Assembly (NCBI RefSeq): GCF_022374875.2
Contig: NZ_CP092427.2
Span: 3,038,001-3,102,000, forward strand
Direction: 5' to 3'
DNA length: 64,000 nt
Origin: Mycolicibacterium rufum
GTDB taxonomy: Bacteria; Actinomycetota; Actinomycetes; Mycobacteriales; Mycobacteriaceae
In this document: piece by piece, positions 46,612 through 52,641 of the stretch
How the letters are laid out: each line of letters begins with the position of its first letter
Numbering within the stretch: position 1 is the stretch's first letter
Notes under the pieces: model-generated
The model's database searches: none
Seen by the model: the letters and a program-made list of their open reading frames with translations, nothing else
Told to the model about the DNA's origin: nothing
Position numbers and translations under genes: made by a program

Positions 46612-46620
46612 ACCCCACAG

Positions 46621-46635
46621 TGTCACTAAGTGACA
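46621..46635. promoter_or_regulatory. TetR operator palindrome, copy 2
   Basis: TGTCACTAAGTGACA repeats the same arms 24 bases from copy 1, so two dimers could bind side by side and control both the TetR gene and the divergent acyltransferase. Confidence 0.75.
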
Positions 46636-46703
46636 ACGACGTCAAGGGCGGCACCTCCCCGTCGGTACGCTGGGCGGCGTCCTTGCCGACCGGAGCCACG
46701 CCG

Positions 46704-47549
46704 ATGAACACCACTGTCGTCCCGGAGACCGCACGCGTGCGGGCGCTGCGGCGCGCCCTCGAGTACACCGCGGATCGCGTGGGACCTCTGGTCGACGCGA
46801 CCCGCCCGTACGTCGACGGCCTGGAGCACCTCCCGCGAGACGGCCGTTTCCTCCTTGTCGGCAACCACACGCAGGCCGGCGTCGAATCGTTCCTGGTCCC
46901 CTACGTCGTCCGTCGAGCGGTGGGGGTCCTGGTACGGCCGTTGGTGGACCGCCAGATGGGCCGGATGCGCGGCCTGTCAGGAGATCTCCTGGCGGCCGCC
47001 GGTGGCGTGGTGGGGAGCCCGGAGGCGGCTCGGGAACTCATGAGCCGCGACGAGCCGGTGCTGGTGTTCCCCGGGGGAGCGCGGGAGATCTCGAAGTTCA
47101 AGGGCGAGCAGAACACCTTGCTCTGGGAGGGCCGGGCCGGGTTCGCCCGCGTGGCGATCGAGCACAGCTACCCGATCGTGCCCGCGGCACTGCTCGGAGG
47201 TGACGAGATCTATCGCAGCCTGGTCGCCCGCGACAGCGTGTGGGGGCGGCTGACCGGTGCGGTGTCGCGGCGGCTGACCGGCCGCACGGACACCGCGATG
47301 CCGTTGCTGCAGGGCATCGGACCGACGATGATCCCGCGGCCGCAGCGGATGTACCTGCGTCTCTGTGCGCCCATCGAGACGGCCGCGCCCGAGGGCGTCG
47401 CAGCGCAGGAGTGGGTGGCGACCGTCAAGCGGCGGACGCAGCAGGCGCTCGAGCATGCCCTCGCCGACCTCGGCGAACTCCGCGCGACCGATCCCTACCG
47501 CCGGCTCGATCCCCGGGCGCGATCGGTGGCGCTCGAACCCGCGCGCTGA
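46704..47549 (+). CDS. Lysophospholipid acyltransferase family protein (paralogue 1)
   Basis: The 281-residue protein belongs to the PlsC-like LPLAT group: RFLLVGNHTQAGVESFL (catalytic HTQAG variant of HxxxxD in which the His-x4-Glu spacing is kept), EPVLVFPGGAREISKFKGE and YPIVPAALLGGDEI. It transfers acyl chains to a glycerolipid or related acceptor at the membrane. ATG 46704 follows GGAG by eight bases. A second gene at 53468-54322 encodes a clear paralogue, also divergent from a TetR gene. Confidence 0.86.
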   Translation: MNTTVVPETARVRALRRALEYTADRVGPLVDATRPYVDGLEHLPRDGRFLLVGNHTQAGVESFLVPYVVRRAVGVLVRPLVDRQMGRMRGLSGDLLAAAGGVVGSPEAARELMSRDEPVLVFPGGAREISKFKGEQNTLLWEGRAGFARVAIEHSYPIVPAALLGGDEIYRSLVARDSVWGRLTGAVSRRLTGRTDTAMPLLQGIGPTMIPRPQRMYLRLCAPIETAAPEGVAAQEWVATVKRRTQQALEHALADLGELRATDPYRRLDPRARSVALEPAR

Positions 47550-47654: not shown

Positions 47655-50600
47655 ATGGGACCGACTCTGCGGTCGGCAACGTACTTCGTTGCCTTCCCGG
47701 TGGCGTATGCGCTGGCCATCATCGTGGGCCGGGCCACGCGGTTGGGCGGTGGCGAGATCGCGCTGGTCTGGCCTGCGGCGGCTGTGTCGACCATCTGGGT
47801 TCTGGCTGCCCACCAACGGTGCGGGCCGCGCGAACGCGCGGCACACCTGGCGCTGTTGACGGTGCTGACGTACGTCGTGAACCTCTTCACCGGCGCCGCG
47901 CCGCTGCTCTCCGCCTGGTTCGTGCTGGTCAACGTGGCGCTCTCCGTGGTCACCGTGGCGGTCCTGACGCACGGGCGCCGCGAGGTGACGCTGCGAGACC
48001 CCGCCGACCTCGGGCGGCTGGTCGCCGCGATCGTCGTCGGCAACTGCTGCGGAGCCGTGCTCGCGGCGGGGTGGTTCGTGGTGGTCGACGGCGATCCCGC
48101 CCTGCAGACCTTCGCCCACTTCGCCGTCCGCAACAGCGCCTCCGCGCTGCTCGGAGTGTGTATCTGGCTGCGGGTCACCGACATCACGTGGACGCGTCCC
48201 CGCGTGACGGTCCTCGGTGTCGTCGAGGCGGTACTGGTCGGGATCAGCGTCGTCGTCGTGTTCGTCTCCGCCTTCTGGCTGACCACCGGGGTGCCGATGG
48301 CCTTCATCACGCTGGTGCCGGCGATGTGGGTGGCGCTGCGGTACAGCACCACCGTCAGCACGGTCTTTCTCACTGCGGCGGGCATCTGGATCATCACGGC
48401 GACACTGCTCGACCACGGCGCCTTGATCGTCCCCGCGCACCTGGAGCGCGCACTGCTCGCGCAGTCCCTGGTCGGCAGCCTGACGATCGTGGTGCTCGCG
48501 TTGGCGCTCTACCGGGATTCCCGCGCGCGTCTGATCTCCGAACTCGAGCTCGCGCGAGACTCTGCGGATCGGGACTCCGCACTGCTCGGCGCTGTCCTCG
48601 ACAGCATCCACGACAGCGTGATCCTCACCGACTCCGACGGTGAGGTGGTGCTGCAGAACGCCCGCGCCGAGGAGTCCGGCCACGTCGACGACGTCATCTC
48701 CGCGTCCCGCCACCCGCGTGTGGACATTCGGCAGTCCGAGCGGCGGGATGTGGTCATCGAGGCCGACGACTCCCGCGTCATCGAGATGACGACCGCCCCC
48801 CTTGCCCGGCAGTCGCCGATGACCGTCGTCGCGTTCCGCGATGTCACCGAGGAGCGCCGGCACGCCCGGGAACTGCAGGAGGCTCGTGACCTGTTCGCCG
48901 GTGTGCTGCAGGCGGCCTCGGAGCAGGCCATCGTCGGCACCGATCCGACCGGTCGCATCACGGTGTTCAACATCGGCGCCGAGCGACTGACCGGATGGAC
49001 AGCGGCCGAGCTGGTCGGCCGCAGATCCACGGACTTCTCCAGTTTCCCGGAGATGTCCGCCCGTGCGGCGGAGCTCGGCGTCGCCCCCGGCCTCGGCGTG
49101 TTCACCCACAACGTCACGCCCCAGACGGCCGAGGTGCGGGAGTGGACCTTTCTTCGCCGGGACGGCTCGCCGGTCGCCATCAATCTGGCCGTGTCGGAGA
49201 TGACCGATCACGACGGCGGCTGCATGGGGTACATCGGCGTCGCCACCGACATCACCGAACGCAAGCAAGCCGAGCAGGCACTGGCCGAGAGTGAGGAGCG
49301 GTTCCGGCTGGCCTTCGACACGGCGCCCATGGGCATGTTCATGTTCGACGTCTCTGCCGAGCACTTCGGCCGGATCACCCGCTGCAACCAGGCCATGGCC
49401 GACGTCCTCGGTCGGCGGCCCGGTGACCTGTTGCAGATGACGGTGACCGACCTCGACGGACACGAATCAGGTTCGGATGCAGCCACGTTGGATCGGCTGT
49501 TGACGCTGCGCGTCGGGCAGACCTTCGACGCGGAGACGTCGTTCCGGCGCGCCGACGGGCACACGGTCTGGGGCCTGGTGTCCGCATCCGTCGTCGCGCC
49601 GCGCGGATCCGAGCCGTACGGGATCTGCCTGGTGGAGGACATCACGGCGCGCAAACGCGTGGAGGACGAACTGCACTACCTGGCCTCCCACGATCCGCTG
49701 ACCGGGCTGGCCAACCGGGTGCTGTTCATGGGCCGCGTCGACAAGGCGCTGGCGGACGCCGAGCGCACGGGATCGGACGGCGTCGGGCTCATCTTCCTCG
49801 ATCTCGACGGCTTCAAGGCGGTGAACGACACCTGGGGCCACGCCCTGGGCGACGAGGTGCTCAAGGTGGTCGGCGATCGGTTGAAGTCGTCGATCGGGCC
49901 GCACGACACCGCGGCGCGTTTGGGCGGCGACGAGTTCGTGGTGCTCTGCCCGCGCGACGCCGACGCCGCGTCTCTGCGCAGCGCCGCCGAACGGATCCGC
50001 GCGGAGATGCGGCGACCCGTGCGCCTGGGCCCCGGTCGGATCTACGACCAGCTCTCGGTCAGCGCCGGCGTGGTGATCTCGCAACCGGGCTGCCGGAGCG
50101 AGACGCTGCTGCAGCGGGCCGACAAGTTGATGTACTTCGCCAAACGCAGCGGCAAGGACTGCGTCACGATGGGCAGTGAACCCCTCGAAGAGGCTGCGCT
50201 GCTGCGCGAGATGCAGCTGACCCCGGAACTCGGGCGGGCGCTGGACCTGCGTGAGTTCGCCGTCCACTTTCAGCCGATCGTGGACTTGCGGACCGGCGAA
50301 TGCGTCGCCGCGGAGGCCCTGTTGCGCTGGCAGCACCCCGAACGTGGCCTGCTGGCCCCCGACGCGTTCCTCAGCATCGCCGAGGCGTCGCGGTTCATGC
50401 CGGCCATCGGGAGAGCGGTGCTCAACGAGGCGTGCCGGCAGGCGCAGATGTGGACCGGTTCCGCGGAGCGGTCCGCGGTGCACGTCAACGTCTCCGGGCG
50501 GCAACTCGAAGCGGGCGATCTGCGGGCCGACGTCCTCAACGCGCTCGACGTGAGCGGGCTGGACCCGCACCGCCTCGTGCTCGAACTCACCGAGACGCAC

Positions 50601-51245
50601 GCTGGGCACATCGCCGCGTCGATCGGTGACGATCTGGCCGCGCTGCGCGATCTGGGCATCCGTATCGCCATCGACGACGTCGGCACCGGTTTCAGCGGGC
50701 TGGTGAAGATCGCTGACCTCCCGATCGACATCATCAAGATCAGTCGTCAGTTCATCGCGGGCCTGCCGGCCGACGTGCGGTGCGGCGCGATCTCGAAGGC
50801 GATCGTCGGGCTGGGCCGCAGCCTCGACATGACGGTCATCGCCGAAGGGATCGAACGCCAGGAGCAGCGCGACCTGCTCCTCGAATGGGGGTGCGCTCTG
50901 GGGCAGGGCTACCTGTTCGGGAAGGCGCGGCCCGGAGTCAGTGGAATCAAACTGCCCTCCTCCCTGTTCCACCCTGCAGAGGCGGTATCACCGCCGCAGC
51001 AGAGGGAAGAGGCGAGTTCGATGAAGAAAATCGGCTTGATGAGCCTGGTGGCCGGTGCACTGTCCGCAGCGGTGATCGGCTTCGCCGGTCCGGCGCAGGC
51101 CGACCAGACCGGCTTCGGGTTCGGGGGCTACGGCTACGGTCATCACGGCTATGGATACGGGTACGGCAACGACGACTACCCCTGGATACATCAGCTGTTC
51201 CCGCACGTGTACGTGCCCCACGTGGACACCACCGTCCACCCCTGA
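47655..51245 (+). CDS. MASE1-PAS-GGDEF-EAL cyclic-di-GMP enzyme, in-frame with a small exported protein
   Basis: Domains in order (of 1196 residues): MASE1 membrane sensor with about eight hydrophobic segments (1-300), three PAS domains (about 310-410, 414-535, 545-665), GGDEF with intact LGGDEFVVL near 755, and EAL with AAEALLRW near 886 and DDVGTGFSGL near 1008. Both catalytic motifs look functional, so it may make and break cyclic di-GMP. After the EAL domain ends (about 1110) there is no stop; the frame runs into a 74-residue protein with its own ribosome site, start codon and signal peptide (51021-51245). Whether both are made as one chain is unclear. ATG 47655 is chosen over 47574 because it precedes the first membrane segment. 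Confidence 0.88.
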   Translation: MGPTLRSATYFVAFPVAYALAIIVGRATRLGGGEIALVWPAAAVSTIWVLAAHQRCGPRERAAHLALLTVLTYVVNLFTGAAPLLSAWFVLVNVALSVVTVAVLTHGRREVTLRDPADLGRLVAAIVVGNCCGAVLAAGWFVVVDGDPALQTFAHFAVRNSASALLGVCIWLRVTDITWTRPRVTVLGVVEAVLVGISVVVVFVSAFWLTTGVPMAFITLVPAMWVALRYSTTVSTVFLTAAGIWIITATLLDHGALIVPAHLERALLAQSLVGSLTIVVLALALYRDSRARLISELELARDSADRDSALLGAVLDSIHDSVILTDSDGEVVLQNARAEESGHVDDVISASRHPRVDIRQSERRDVVIEADDSRVIEMTTAPLARQSPMTVVAFRDVTEERRHARELQEARDLFAGVLQAASEQAIVGTDPTGRITVFNIGAERLTGWTAAELVGRRSTDFSSFPEMSARAAELGVAPGLGVFTHNVTPQTAEVREWTFLRRDGSPVAINLAVSEMTDHDGGCMGYIGVATDITERKQAEQALAESEERFRLAFDTAPMGMFMFDVSAEHFGRITRCNQAMADVLGRRPGDLLQMTVTDLDGHESGSDAATLDRLLTLRVGQTFDAETSFRRADGHTVWGLVSASVVAPRGSEPYGICLVEDITARKRVEDELHYLASHDPLTGLANRVLFMGRVDKALADAERTGSDGVGLIFLDLDGFKAVNDTWGHALGDEVLKVVGDRLKSSIGPHDTAARLGGDEFVVLCPRDADAASLRSAAERIRAEMRRPVRLGPGRIYDQLSVSAGVVISQPGCRSETLLQRADKLMYFAKRSGKDCVTMGSEPLEEAALLREMQLTPELGRALDLREFAVHFQPIVDLRTGECVAAEALLRWQHPERGLLAPDAFLSIAEASRFMPAIGRAVLNEACRQAQMWTGSAERSAVHVNVSGRQLEAGDLRADVLNALDVSGLDPHRLVLELTETHAGHIAASIGDDLAALRDLGIRIAIDDVGTGFSGLVKIADLPIDIIKISRQFIAGLPADVRCGAISKAIVGLGRSLDMTVIAEGIERQEQRDLLLEWGCALGQGYLFGKARPGVSGIKLPSSLFHPAEAVSPPQQREEASSMKKIGLMSLVAGALSAAVIGFAGPAQADQTGFGFGGYGYGHHGYGYGYGNDDYPWIHQLFPHVYVPHVDTTVHP
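51021..51245 (+). CDS. Small exported Gly/Tyr/His-rich protein (internal start within the longer frame)
   Basis: From ATG 51021, with AAGAGG eight bases upstream, the 74 residues form a complete small mycobacterial-type exported protein: signal MKKIGLMSLVAGALSAAVIGFAGPAQA cleaved before DQTGF, then repeats of GYG and HH (FGFGGYGYGHHGYGYGYG) and a His/Pro-rich tail. This looks like an independent gene whose neighbour's stop codon is missing; it may also be made as part of the long chain. The His and Tyr residues suggest metal binding, which is a guess. Confidence 0.6.
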   Translation: MKKIGLMSLVAGALSAAVIGFAGPAQADQTGFGFGGYGYGHHGYGYGYGNDDYPWIHQLFPHVYVPHVDTTVHP

Positions 51246-51253
51246 TCAACCCC

Positions 51254-51290
51254 CGACGAGGGCGCCCGCGGACCGCGGGCGCCCTCGTCG
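51254..51290. terminator. Perfect 17-bp stem terminator
   Basis: A perfect 17-base stem (51254-51270 with 51274-51290) closed by a GAC loop starts eight bases after the stop at 51245. It can serve the plus-strand gene and also the convergent S4 gene. Confidence 0.85.
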
Positions 51291-51356
51291 TCTGTTCGGG
51301 GGGGACTACGTAGTCGAAACACCCACCGCAGCAGTCCGATTCGAGGACAGCCGGGT

Positions 51357-51719
51357 TCAGAGCTGCCGTGCGCGCCACTTGTCGAGGAGTCGGCGGTCCC
51401 TCTTCGTCGGCCTGCCTGCCCCGCGGTCGCGCACCGCCACGGGCACCGCCGCGGGCGGCGGCGGGGGAGTCCGGTCGAGGTAACAGGTGGCCGCGTCGGC
51501 AGCACCCACCCGCTTCTGGATCACCCGGACGACCTCGACGATCCGCGTCCGGTCGCCGACGAGCGCGCGCACCGTGTCGCCAGGGCCCACCATGGTCGAC
51601 GGCTTGGCCGGCCGGTCGTTCACGCGAACGTGTCCACCGCGGCACGCCTCGGCCGCGTCGGGCCGCGTCTTGGTCAGCCGGACCGCCCACAACCAGCGGT
51701 CCACCCGCGTCGCCTCCAT
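51357..51719 (-). CDS. S4 domain RNA-binding protein (Hsp15-like)
   Basis: The 120-residue protein starts MEATRVDRWLWAVRLTKTRPDAAEACRGGHVRVNDRPAKPSTMVGPGDTVRALVGDRTRIVEV, a typical S4 domain with the VDRWLWAVR start of Hsp15/RlmD-type proteins, followed by a basic tail. Hsp15 binds free 50S subunits carrying nascent chains during heat shock. In-frame ATGs exist at 51731 and 51728; 51719 gives the family start. Confidence 0.88.
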   Translation of the reverse strand: MEATRVDRWLWAVRLTKTRPDAAEACRGGHVRVNDRPAKPSTMVGPGDTVRALVGDRTRIVEVVRVIQKRVGAADAATCYLDRTPPPPPAAVPVAVRDRGAGRPTKRDRRLLDKWRARQL

Positions 51720-51759
51720 GGGGACCATCATGGACCGCGAGGGGCGACCCCTGGAGGAG

Positions 51760-52641
51760 ATGACCGTGCTTCTGGTGACCGGGCCGAGTGGAAACGTCGG
51801 GGAGGAACTCGTCGACCTCCTCGACACGCGGTATCCACACACGTGGCGCGTCGGCAGCCGGCATCCCGAACGGTGGTCGGCCGCCCTTTCGGCCGAGGCC
51901 GTGCGTCTCGACTTCTTCGACCGATCCACCTGGACCCCGGCGCTCGATGGTGTCGACGCGCTGTTCCTGCTGTTTCCCCTGCCGGGCAACCGCGCCGCAC
52001 GGGAGGCAATCGTCCCGTTCCTGCATGCCGCCGAGCGCGCGGGCTGCCGCCACGTCGTCTACGTGTCGGTGTTCGGCGCCGACCGGGCGCGCTTCATCCC
52101 GCACCACACGGTGGAGGCCGCGCTGCGTGATGCGGGGATGTCGGCCACGGTGCTGCGGTGCAGCTTCTTCATGCAGAATCTGCATCGCGCCATCTCGACT
52201 CATGGCGTCGACATCGCCGATGCCGGCGAACTCTTCATCCCCGCGGGGCGGGGCAAGACCACGTTCATCGACGCACGCGACGCCGCCGAGGTGGCCGCCA
52301 CCGTGCTCACCGACCCCGACCCGCATCGCGATGTGGTGTACCACCTGACCGGCCCGACGCCGTTGACCATGGACGACGTCGCCGCCGAACTGACTGCCAC
52401 CCTGGGGCGCCCGATCCGCTACGTCAACCCAGGTTTGGTGCGGTTCGCCGTGCGGCTGCGGGGCCGCGGAGTCGGCTGGGACACCATCGGATTCATGTCC
52501 GCGGTCTACACGTTGACCCGGCTCGGGCAGAATCAGCCGGTCACCGACGACGTGCGGCGACTTCTGGGCCGACCGCCGCGGACGCTGCACGAGTTCCTGG
52601 TCGATGCCGCCTGGCGCTGGCGGGACCGTGCATGGACCTAG
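51760..52641 (+). CDS. NmrA-like NAD(P)-binding protein
   Basis: The 293-residue protein is an atypical short-chain dehydrogenase of the NmrA/HSCARG type: first strand and loop LLVTGPSGNVGEELVDLL, VDALFLLFPLPGN, HVVYVSVFGADRARFIPHHTVEAALRDAG and a VYHLTGPTPLTMDDVAAELT block. It lacks the Tyr-x3-Lys pair, so it is likely a redox sensor or binding protein, not an oxidoreductase. ATG 51760 or GTG 51766 (seven bases from GGAGGA) may be the start. Its TAG overlaps the stop of the convergent TetR gene. Confidence 0.85.
   Translation: MTVLLVTGPSGNVGEELVDLLDTRYPHTWRVGSRHPERWSAALSAEAVRLDFFDRSTWTPALDGVDALFLLFPLPGNRAAREAIVPFLHAAERAGCRHVVYVSVFGADRARFIPHHTVEAALRDAGMSATVLRCSFFMQNLHRAISTHGVDIADAGELFIPAGRGKTTFIDARDAAEVAATVLTDPDPHRDVVYHLTGPTPLTMDDVAAELTATLGRPIRYVNPGLVRFAVRLRGRGVGWDTIGFMSAVYTLTRLGQNQPVTDDVRRLLGRPPRTLHEFLVDAAWRWRDRAWT

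What the first reader, a model, noticed from the sequence alone, without database searches (positions are those of the whole stretch)
47655..51245. Cyclic-di-GMP enzyme fused in frame to an exported small protein
No stop separates the EAL domain from a protein with its own ribosome site, Met, signal peptide and cleavage site. Either a stop was lost and the small protein is made from an internal start, or the chain is truly fused, which would place a signal peptide at residue 1123 of a cytoplasmic enzyme. Overlap of a signalling enzyme and a secreted Gly/Tyr/His-rich protein is unusual and could couple their production.
Basis: seen in the sequence. Interest (0 to 1): 0.7.

Follow-up and report, generated by a model that had tools for sequence, protein, structure and literature searches.

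The report
Signalling enzyme merged with exported protein
In this mycobacterium the gene of a predicted c-di-GMP enzyme runs, without a stop codon, into the gene of a small, predicted exported protein that five relatives keep separate; the small protein is likely still made on its own, from what looks like a stress-type promoter inside the end of the enzyme gene.

Summary
The open frame is real: 47655-51245 reads from a PAS-GGDEF-EAL enzyme into a 74-residue protein with a signal-peptide pattern. In all five other genomes found with the two genes adjacent (M. chubuense and M. chlorophenolicum among them) a TAG stop stands at the codon where the window has a glutamate codon (50979-50981), and the small gene is out of frame with the enzyme. 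So the fusion is most simply a stop loss, seen in one genome. The small gene looks complete in itself: 38 of 39 family loci counted carry GGAAT(C/T)-N17-GTT 75-110 bases before the start, against one other hit in 246,113 positions; 34 of the 39 have no trace of this enzyme within 1.5 kb. The pattern fits the SigH/SigE-type promoters of mycobacteria. In the six adjacent genomes it lies inside the enzyme's last codons. Most likely the small protein is made from its own promoter and start, and the fused chain is a by-product. Whether that chain is made, inserted or clipped is untested, and a sequencing error is not excluded.

The parts
47655..50978 (+). enzyme part: hydrophobic N-terminal segments, PAS domains, GGDEF, EAL (1108 codons before the position where relatives stop)
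   Evidence: Pfam matches PAS, GGDEF, EAL; hydropathy; 81-83% identical relatives
50943..50968 (+). promoter-like element GGAATC-N17-GTT of the small gene, inside the enzyme's last codons
   Evidence: 38 of 39 family loci counted carry GGAAT(C/T)-N17-GTT upstream; alignment of the six adjacent genomes; matches published GGAAYR-N17-GTT except the sixth base
50979..50981 (+). glutamate codon where 5 of 5 adjacent relatives have a TAG stop
50982..51020 (+). linker; leader of the small gene in relatives; among the six adjacent genomes only the window's has both frames in phase
   Evidence: -35 start to ATG is 78 bases here, 77, 79, 79, 80, 80 in the five others
51006..51016 (+). ribosome site GAAGAGGCGAG of the small gene, largely conserved in the family
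   Evidence: leader alignment of 23 loci
51021..51101 (+). predicted signal peptide (27 residues, A-x-A pattern before Asp)
   Evidence: alignment A1, hydropathy; no signal-peptide program was available
51102..51242 (+). predicted mature small protein, Gly/Tyr/His-rich with a conserved end (family consensus PWxxQLxPxVKVPHVDT)
51255..51289 (+). strong G+C-rich hairpin after the stop, terminator-like but without a T run
   Evidence: hairpin in all six adjacent genomes; one search lists no terminator with a T run

Best explanation
This is most likely a stop-loss fusion: two genes that stand separate in five relatives read as one frame in the window genome, while the small protein is likely still made from a predicted ECF-type promoter and its own start codon inside the enzyme gene's end. 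Shown by sequence: the small gene with its promoter-like element lies directly behind the enzyme in six genomes; there the element doubles as the enzyme's last codons; in five of the six a TAG stop follows it, and in the window it does not. Inferred: under envelope or oxidative stress an alternative sigma factor (SigE-like rather than SigH-like, by the sixth base) transcribes the small gene, whose product is exported by the Sec route and cleaved after residue 27. Inferred: when the enzyme's own mRNA is translated, ribosomes run on and add 88 residues to the EAL domain's tail, including the signal peptide; that chain is probably a tolerated by-product.
For: Relatives' stops and out-of-frame starts in 5 of 5. 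Promoter-like pattern in 38 of 39 family loci with a fixed 17-base gap, against 1 other hit in 246,113 positions; 34 of the 39 show no enzyme match within 1.5 kb. In the six adjacent genomes the codons GGA ATC AAA of the pattern are unchanged, although GGA is 10 of 108 Gly codons and AAA 4 of 17 Lys codons in the window's frame. Published SigH consensus GGAAYR-N17-GTT, SigE preferring a pyrimidine at the sixth base (PMC4803200, passages). Small gene conserved in protein, own against the five: dN 0.046-0.086, dS 0.265-0.624. Hairpin after the stop in all six. In 12 genomes (13 loci) where the enzyme was read to its end without the small gene beside it, its tail is of other sequence.
Against: No transcript, ribosome or protein data. 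The sixth base departs from the SigH consensus, the pattern that I counted allowed only C or T there, and no sigma factor was tested. One family locus (L051) lacks the pattern. Only one genome has the fusion, so a base-calling error at that codon cannot be excluded from here; three searches for independent copies timed out. The leader shows no conserved RNA structure, and the hairpin lacks a T run.
Confidence: 0.8

Rival explanations
1. A working fusion: the enzyme chain carries the signal peptide as a last membrane segment, with the small protein outside, possibly cut off by signal peptidase, so that one translation event gives both products.
For: The first 290 residues hold several hydrophobic segments and the PAS-GGDEF-EAL part is predicted cytoplasmic, so a further in-to-out segment at 1125-1147 is topologically possible. 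The 14 linker codons hold no stop.
Against: The arrangement is in 1 of 6 adjacent genomes; the small gene has its own promoter-like element in 38 of 39 loci; nothing shows selection on the linker.
Confidence: 0.08
2. A base-calling or assembly error at one codon: the strain has two separate genes like its relatives.
For: All 5 adjacent relatives have a stop at exactly this codon. [quoted passage not shown]
Against: The genome is rated 100% complete, 0.17% contaminated, in 3 contigs. The spacer length also differs from the five relatives. Reads were not available.
Confidence: 0.1
3. The adjacency itself is selected: the enzyme and the small protein act together, and the shared DNA couples them.
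For: The order enzyme then small gene holds in six genomes, and the acyltransferase gene stands upstream in both named relatives.
Against: In genomes that have both genes they can lie far apart: G106, G120, G202 and G222. 34 of 39 family loci counted have no match to this enzyme within 1.5 kb.
Confidence: 0.12

Closest known systems
MorA-type PAS-GGDEF-EAL c-di-GMP enzymes (PDB 4rnh, 'Motility regulator'; the name MorA is recalled)
   Same: GGDEF and EAL domains align over 2-420 of the 438 residues searched, E 3.2e-87; EAL signature residues kept
   Different: the window's frame continues 88 codons past the relatives' stop into a predicted exported protein; the part before GGDEF was not compared with it
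SigH/SigE regulon promoters of mycobacteria (GGAAYR-N17-GTT; PMC4803200, passages)
   Same: GGAA core, pyrimidine at base 5, 17-base gap, GTT
   Different: sixth base is C, the SigE-like choice; dependence on either factor untested; the passages read do not name this small family
C-terminal extensions by stop-codon loss (Saccharomyces, Drosophila; PMC4494051, abstract and outline)
   Same: a lost stop adds downstream codons to an existing protein
   Different: here the added stretch is a whole downstream gene with its own start and signal-peptide pattern, in a bacterium
Small proteins of the mycobacterial translational landscape (PMC4633059, listing and start of abstract only)
   Same: the title calls small proteins a common feature in mycobacteria
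   Different: here the small frame is conserved, and in the window it is in frame with and inside a large one

Membership tests
GGDEF-EAL c-di-GMP enzyme | GGDEF and EAL domains above the curated cut-off | tested here: met
   PF00990 137.4 bits (cut-off 23.8), PF00563 215.8 bits (cut-off 31.3)
GGDEF-EAL c-di-GMP enzyme | catalytic signatures GGDEF, EAL, NVS, LELTE, DDxGTG, K, AEGIE, QGY (list recalled) | tested here: met
   all present; an inhibitory RxxD before GGDEF (recalled) is absent
GGDEF-EAL c-di-GMP enzyme | cyclase or phosphodiesterase activity | not testable with these tools
   needs purified protein
SigH-type ECF promoter | GGAAY and GTT 17 bases after the hexamer | tested here: met
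   38 of 39 family loci; consensus
SigH-type ECF promoter | purine at the sixth base of the -35 hexamer | tested here: not met
   C in the window; the paper says SigH strongly prefers a purine, SigE a pyrimidine; it also says variation at the sixth base can be tolerated
SigE-type ECF promoter | GGAA core and pyrimidine at the sixth base | tested here: met
   GGAATC; of the 38 loci with the pattern 35 have C and 3 T at the sixth base, where the pattern allowed only these two
SigE-type ECF promoter | transcription depends on SigE | not testable with these tools
   needs a strain without sigE
Sec-exported protein | positive start, hydrophobic core, A-x-A before the cut | tested here: met
   MKK, core 1125-1147, AQA-D; conserved in the 21-member alignment; no prediction program used
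functional fusion protein | one chain detected in cells | not testable with these tools
   needs immunoblot or mass spectrometry

The most novel reading that the evidence does not exclude
One message, two fates: the c-di-GMP enzyme carries a secreted protein as a cleavable membrane-tail, so each round of enzyme synthesis also releases the exported protein, while a stress promoter buried in the enzyme's last codons can make the exported protein alone. Stop loss would then have tied c-di-GMP signalling to an envelope-stress output in one step.
Probability: 0.08. Interest if true: 0.75.

Novelty: new variant of a known kind. Interest (0 to 1): 0.45.

Why it matters
It shows a gene fusion next to five relatives that keep the two genes apart, with DNA that appears to serve both as promoter and as protein code. 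It also points to a family of small, predicted exported proteins of mycobacteria, without a Pfam or NCBIfam model, that shares a nearly invariant stress-type promoter pattern; if the pattern works, this would be a handle for a new output of the envelope-stress response. For annotation it is a warning: a gene caller may report one long protein and miss the conserved small gene.

Tried and rejected
Conserved RNA hairpin in the leader: an inverted repeat seen by eye (GGCGGT..ACCGCC) is not supported; the consensus fold of 23 leaders has no pairs. Sigma-70 promoter and T-run terminator: none found in 50850-51400. A regulon of the same promoter pattern in this genome: GGAATCA-N16-GTT has 5 sites, with 2 for the reversed-pattern control, so there is little excess over chance; besides the window's own, one of them (L097) stands between two genes on the same strand and may be real, the others and one site of a looser pattern lie over open frames of 206 codons or more. 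Structure prediction was not run: the tail is low in complexity and a model would not decide between the explanations.

Rows left out: one search started from 40 chosen loci. L083 could not be placed and was dropped; L051, a second copy in G166, lacks the pattern. Not in that count: loci L012-L035 other than L025 (mostly signal-peptide-only, weak or second segments of one gene), L049 (likewise), the named loci L087 and L088, loci that repeat places already counted, and the matches for which no locus was given. Related genomes are not independent trials. In one search enzymes whose match ends near residue 845 (L060-L065) were not read, so their ends are unknown to me.

Confidence in the best explanation went from 0.83 to 0.80 and in the working fusion from 0.10 to 0.08, so that it agrees with the novel case.

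Full report
The observation. The window's + strand is open from 47574 (47655 by the Met from which the close relatives' alignments run) to 51245. Pfam finds PAS, GGDEF and EAL domains far above cut-off and nothing in the last 74 residues. From 47655 the chain has 1196 residues, EAL ends near 1090 and the small protein's Met is residue 1123.

Relatives. The window lies in a genome of 6.1 million bases (G000). Relatives of the enzyme at 81-83% identity are in G078 and G291 and in Mycolicibacterium chlorophenolicum DSM 43826 and M. chubuense DSM 44219 (L087, L088); the contig positions of L088 agree with G291, so I count these two as one genome. Two further genomes, G019 and G221, have the same adjacency with a more distant enzyme. 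Thus six genomes, the window's included, have the small gene directly behind the enzyme. In the five others a TAG stop stands at the same aligned codon, where the window has a glutamate codon at 50979-50981. From the -35 element to the small ATG there are 78 bases in the window and 77, 79, 79, 80 and 80 in the others, so only the window has both frames in phase. As the two most distant adjacent genomes (G019, G221) also have the stop, its loss is most simply placed on the window's lineage (inference; no tree was built).

The small gene as its own unit. Upstream of the start in the family the pattern GGAAT(C/T)-N17-GTT stands at 75-110 bases: 38 of 39 loci counted, with 1 other occurrence in 246,113 positions of the same loci. 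A tblastn of the enzyme against these 39 loci, which mostly reach 1.5 kb to each side, matches the 5 adjacent ones and none of the other 34. In one search, where a DNA query spanned the junction, 34 of 297 genomes matched: 4 over the junction (G291, G078, G019, G221), 2 over the enzyme's end only (G114, G280), and 28 from the promoter or leader of the small gene onward (one of them, G120, has a second match to the enzyme's end elsewhere). A ribosome site GAAGAGGCGAG is largely conserved in 23 leaders. In the six adjacent genomes a strong hairpin follows the stop; it has no T run and the terminator scan does not list it.

Which promoter. The published SigH consensus of M. tuberculosis is GGAAYR-N17-GTT; the same paper says that SigE prefers a pyrimidine and SigH strongly a purine at the sixth base, and that variation there can be tolerated (PMC4803200, passages). 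Of the 38 loci 35 have C and 3 T at that base, which the counted pattern required. So the element reads as SigE-like within this group. No sigma factor was tested. In the window's own genome the pattern GGAATCA-N16-GTT is no more than slightly above its control (5 against 2), so no regulon is claimed.

Promoter inside code. In the six adjacent genomes the element lies in the enzyme's frame as the codons GGA ATC AAA and onward. The nine bases are unchanged in all six, although GGA is 10 of 108 Gly codons and AAA 4 of 17 Lys codons in the window's frame. In the 13 loci (12 genomes; L070 and L089 are the same) where the enzyme was read to its end and the small gene is not beside it, the tail is of other sequence. 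The reading is that the small gene's promoter region has come to encode the enzyme's end in this clade (inference).

Selection. The small gene differs from the five relatives by dN 0.046-0.086 and dS 0.265-0.624; the 300 enzyme codons before the element by dN 0.057-0.250 and dS 0.577-0.954. Both are conserved in protein over the pairwise comparisons; these do not isolate the time since the stop was lost.

The small family. With a profile of 21 members, 174 of 396 genomes of the genus have a match at E 1e-6 or better, though many weaker matches cover little more than the signal peptide. In 150 genomes drawn from the order 5 matched, the window's own among them and all of its genus, out of 55 genera. 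Invariant residues in the 21 include A27 before the predicted cut and, near the end, W-x5-P-x-V-x-V-P-x-V-x-T. No Pfam or NCBIfam family matched the window's member.

What the fused chain could do. The first 290 residues hold several hydrophobic segments and the only one after that is 1125-1147. If made, the fused chain could be threaded out there, and signal peptidase could release the same mature protein. Nothing here shows it.

In print. Eight searches: promoter consensus and sigma factors, internal starts and promoters, c-di-GMP enzymes in mycobacteria, stop loss and gene fusion. No listed title or abstract start describes this case. Only the listed best papers were seen, and the library holds open-access papers only.

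Verdict. A stop-loss fusion, present in the assembled sequence and most simply derived, whose small partner is most likely expressed on its own. Ordinary in mechanism, unusual in anatomy.

Noticed in passing
L097, G000:C1:1831840-1831865 (outside the window): The pattern GGAATCA-N16-GTT stands between two genes on the same strand, 58 bases before an ATG whose frame looks by eye like a cyclic-nucleotide-binding sensor; the gene before it ends like a thioredoxin reductase. Possibly a second gene of the same promoter type.
   Followed up: partly
51487-52638 (+) and 51357-51989 (-): An NmrA-like frame overlaps a long antisense frame that looks by eye like an S4 RNA-binding protein; both frames are matched in M. 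chubuense. The true starts are unclear.
   Followed up: partly
46620-47549: Acyltransferase gene directly before the enzyme, kept in M. chlorophenolicum and M. chubuense at 88-89% identity.
   Followed up: no
L067, L068 (G019): This enzyme lacks the stretch that corresponds to query residues 542-665, about one PAS domain.
   Followed up: no
L061 (G109): The enzyme relative has an in-frame TGA within the matched stretch.
   Followed up: no
L041 and L051 (G166, contig C2): Two copies of the small gene about 4.6 kb apart; one keeps the promoter pattern, the other lacks it. Pairs 2-5 kb apart also in G249, G242 and G253.
   Followed up: no
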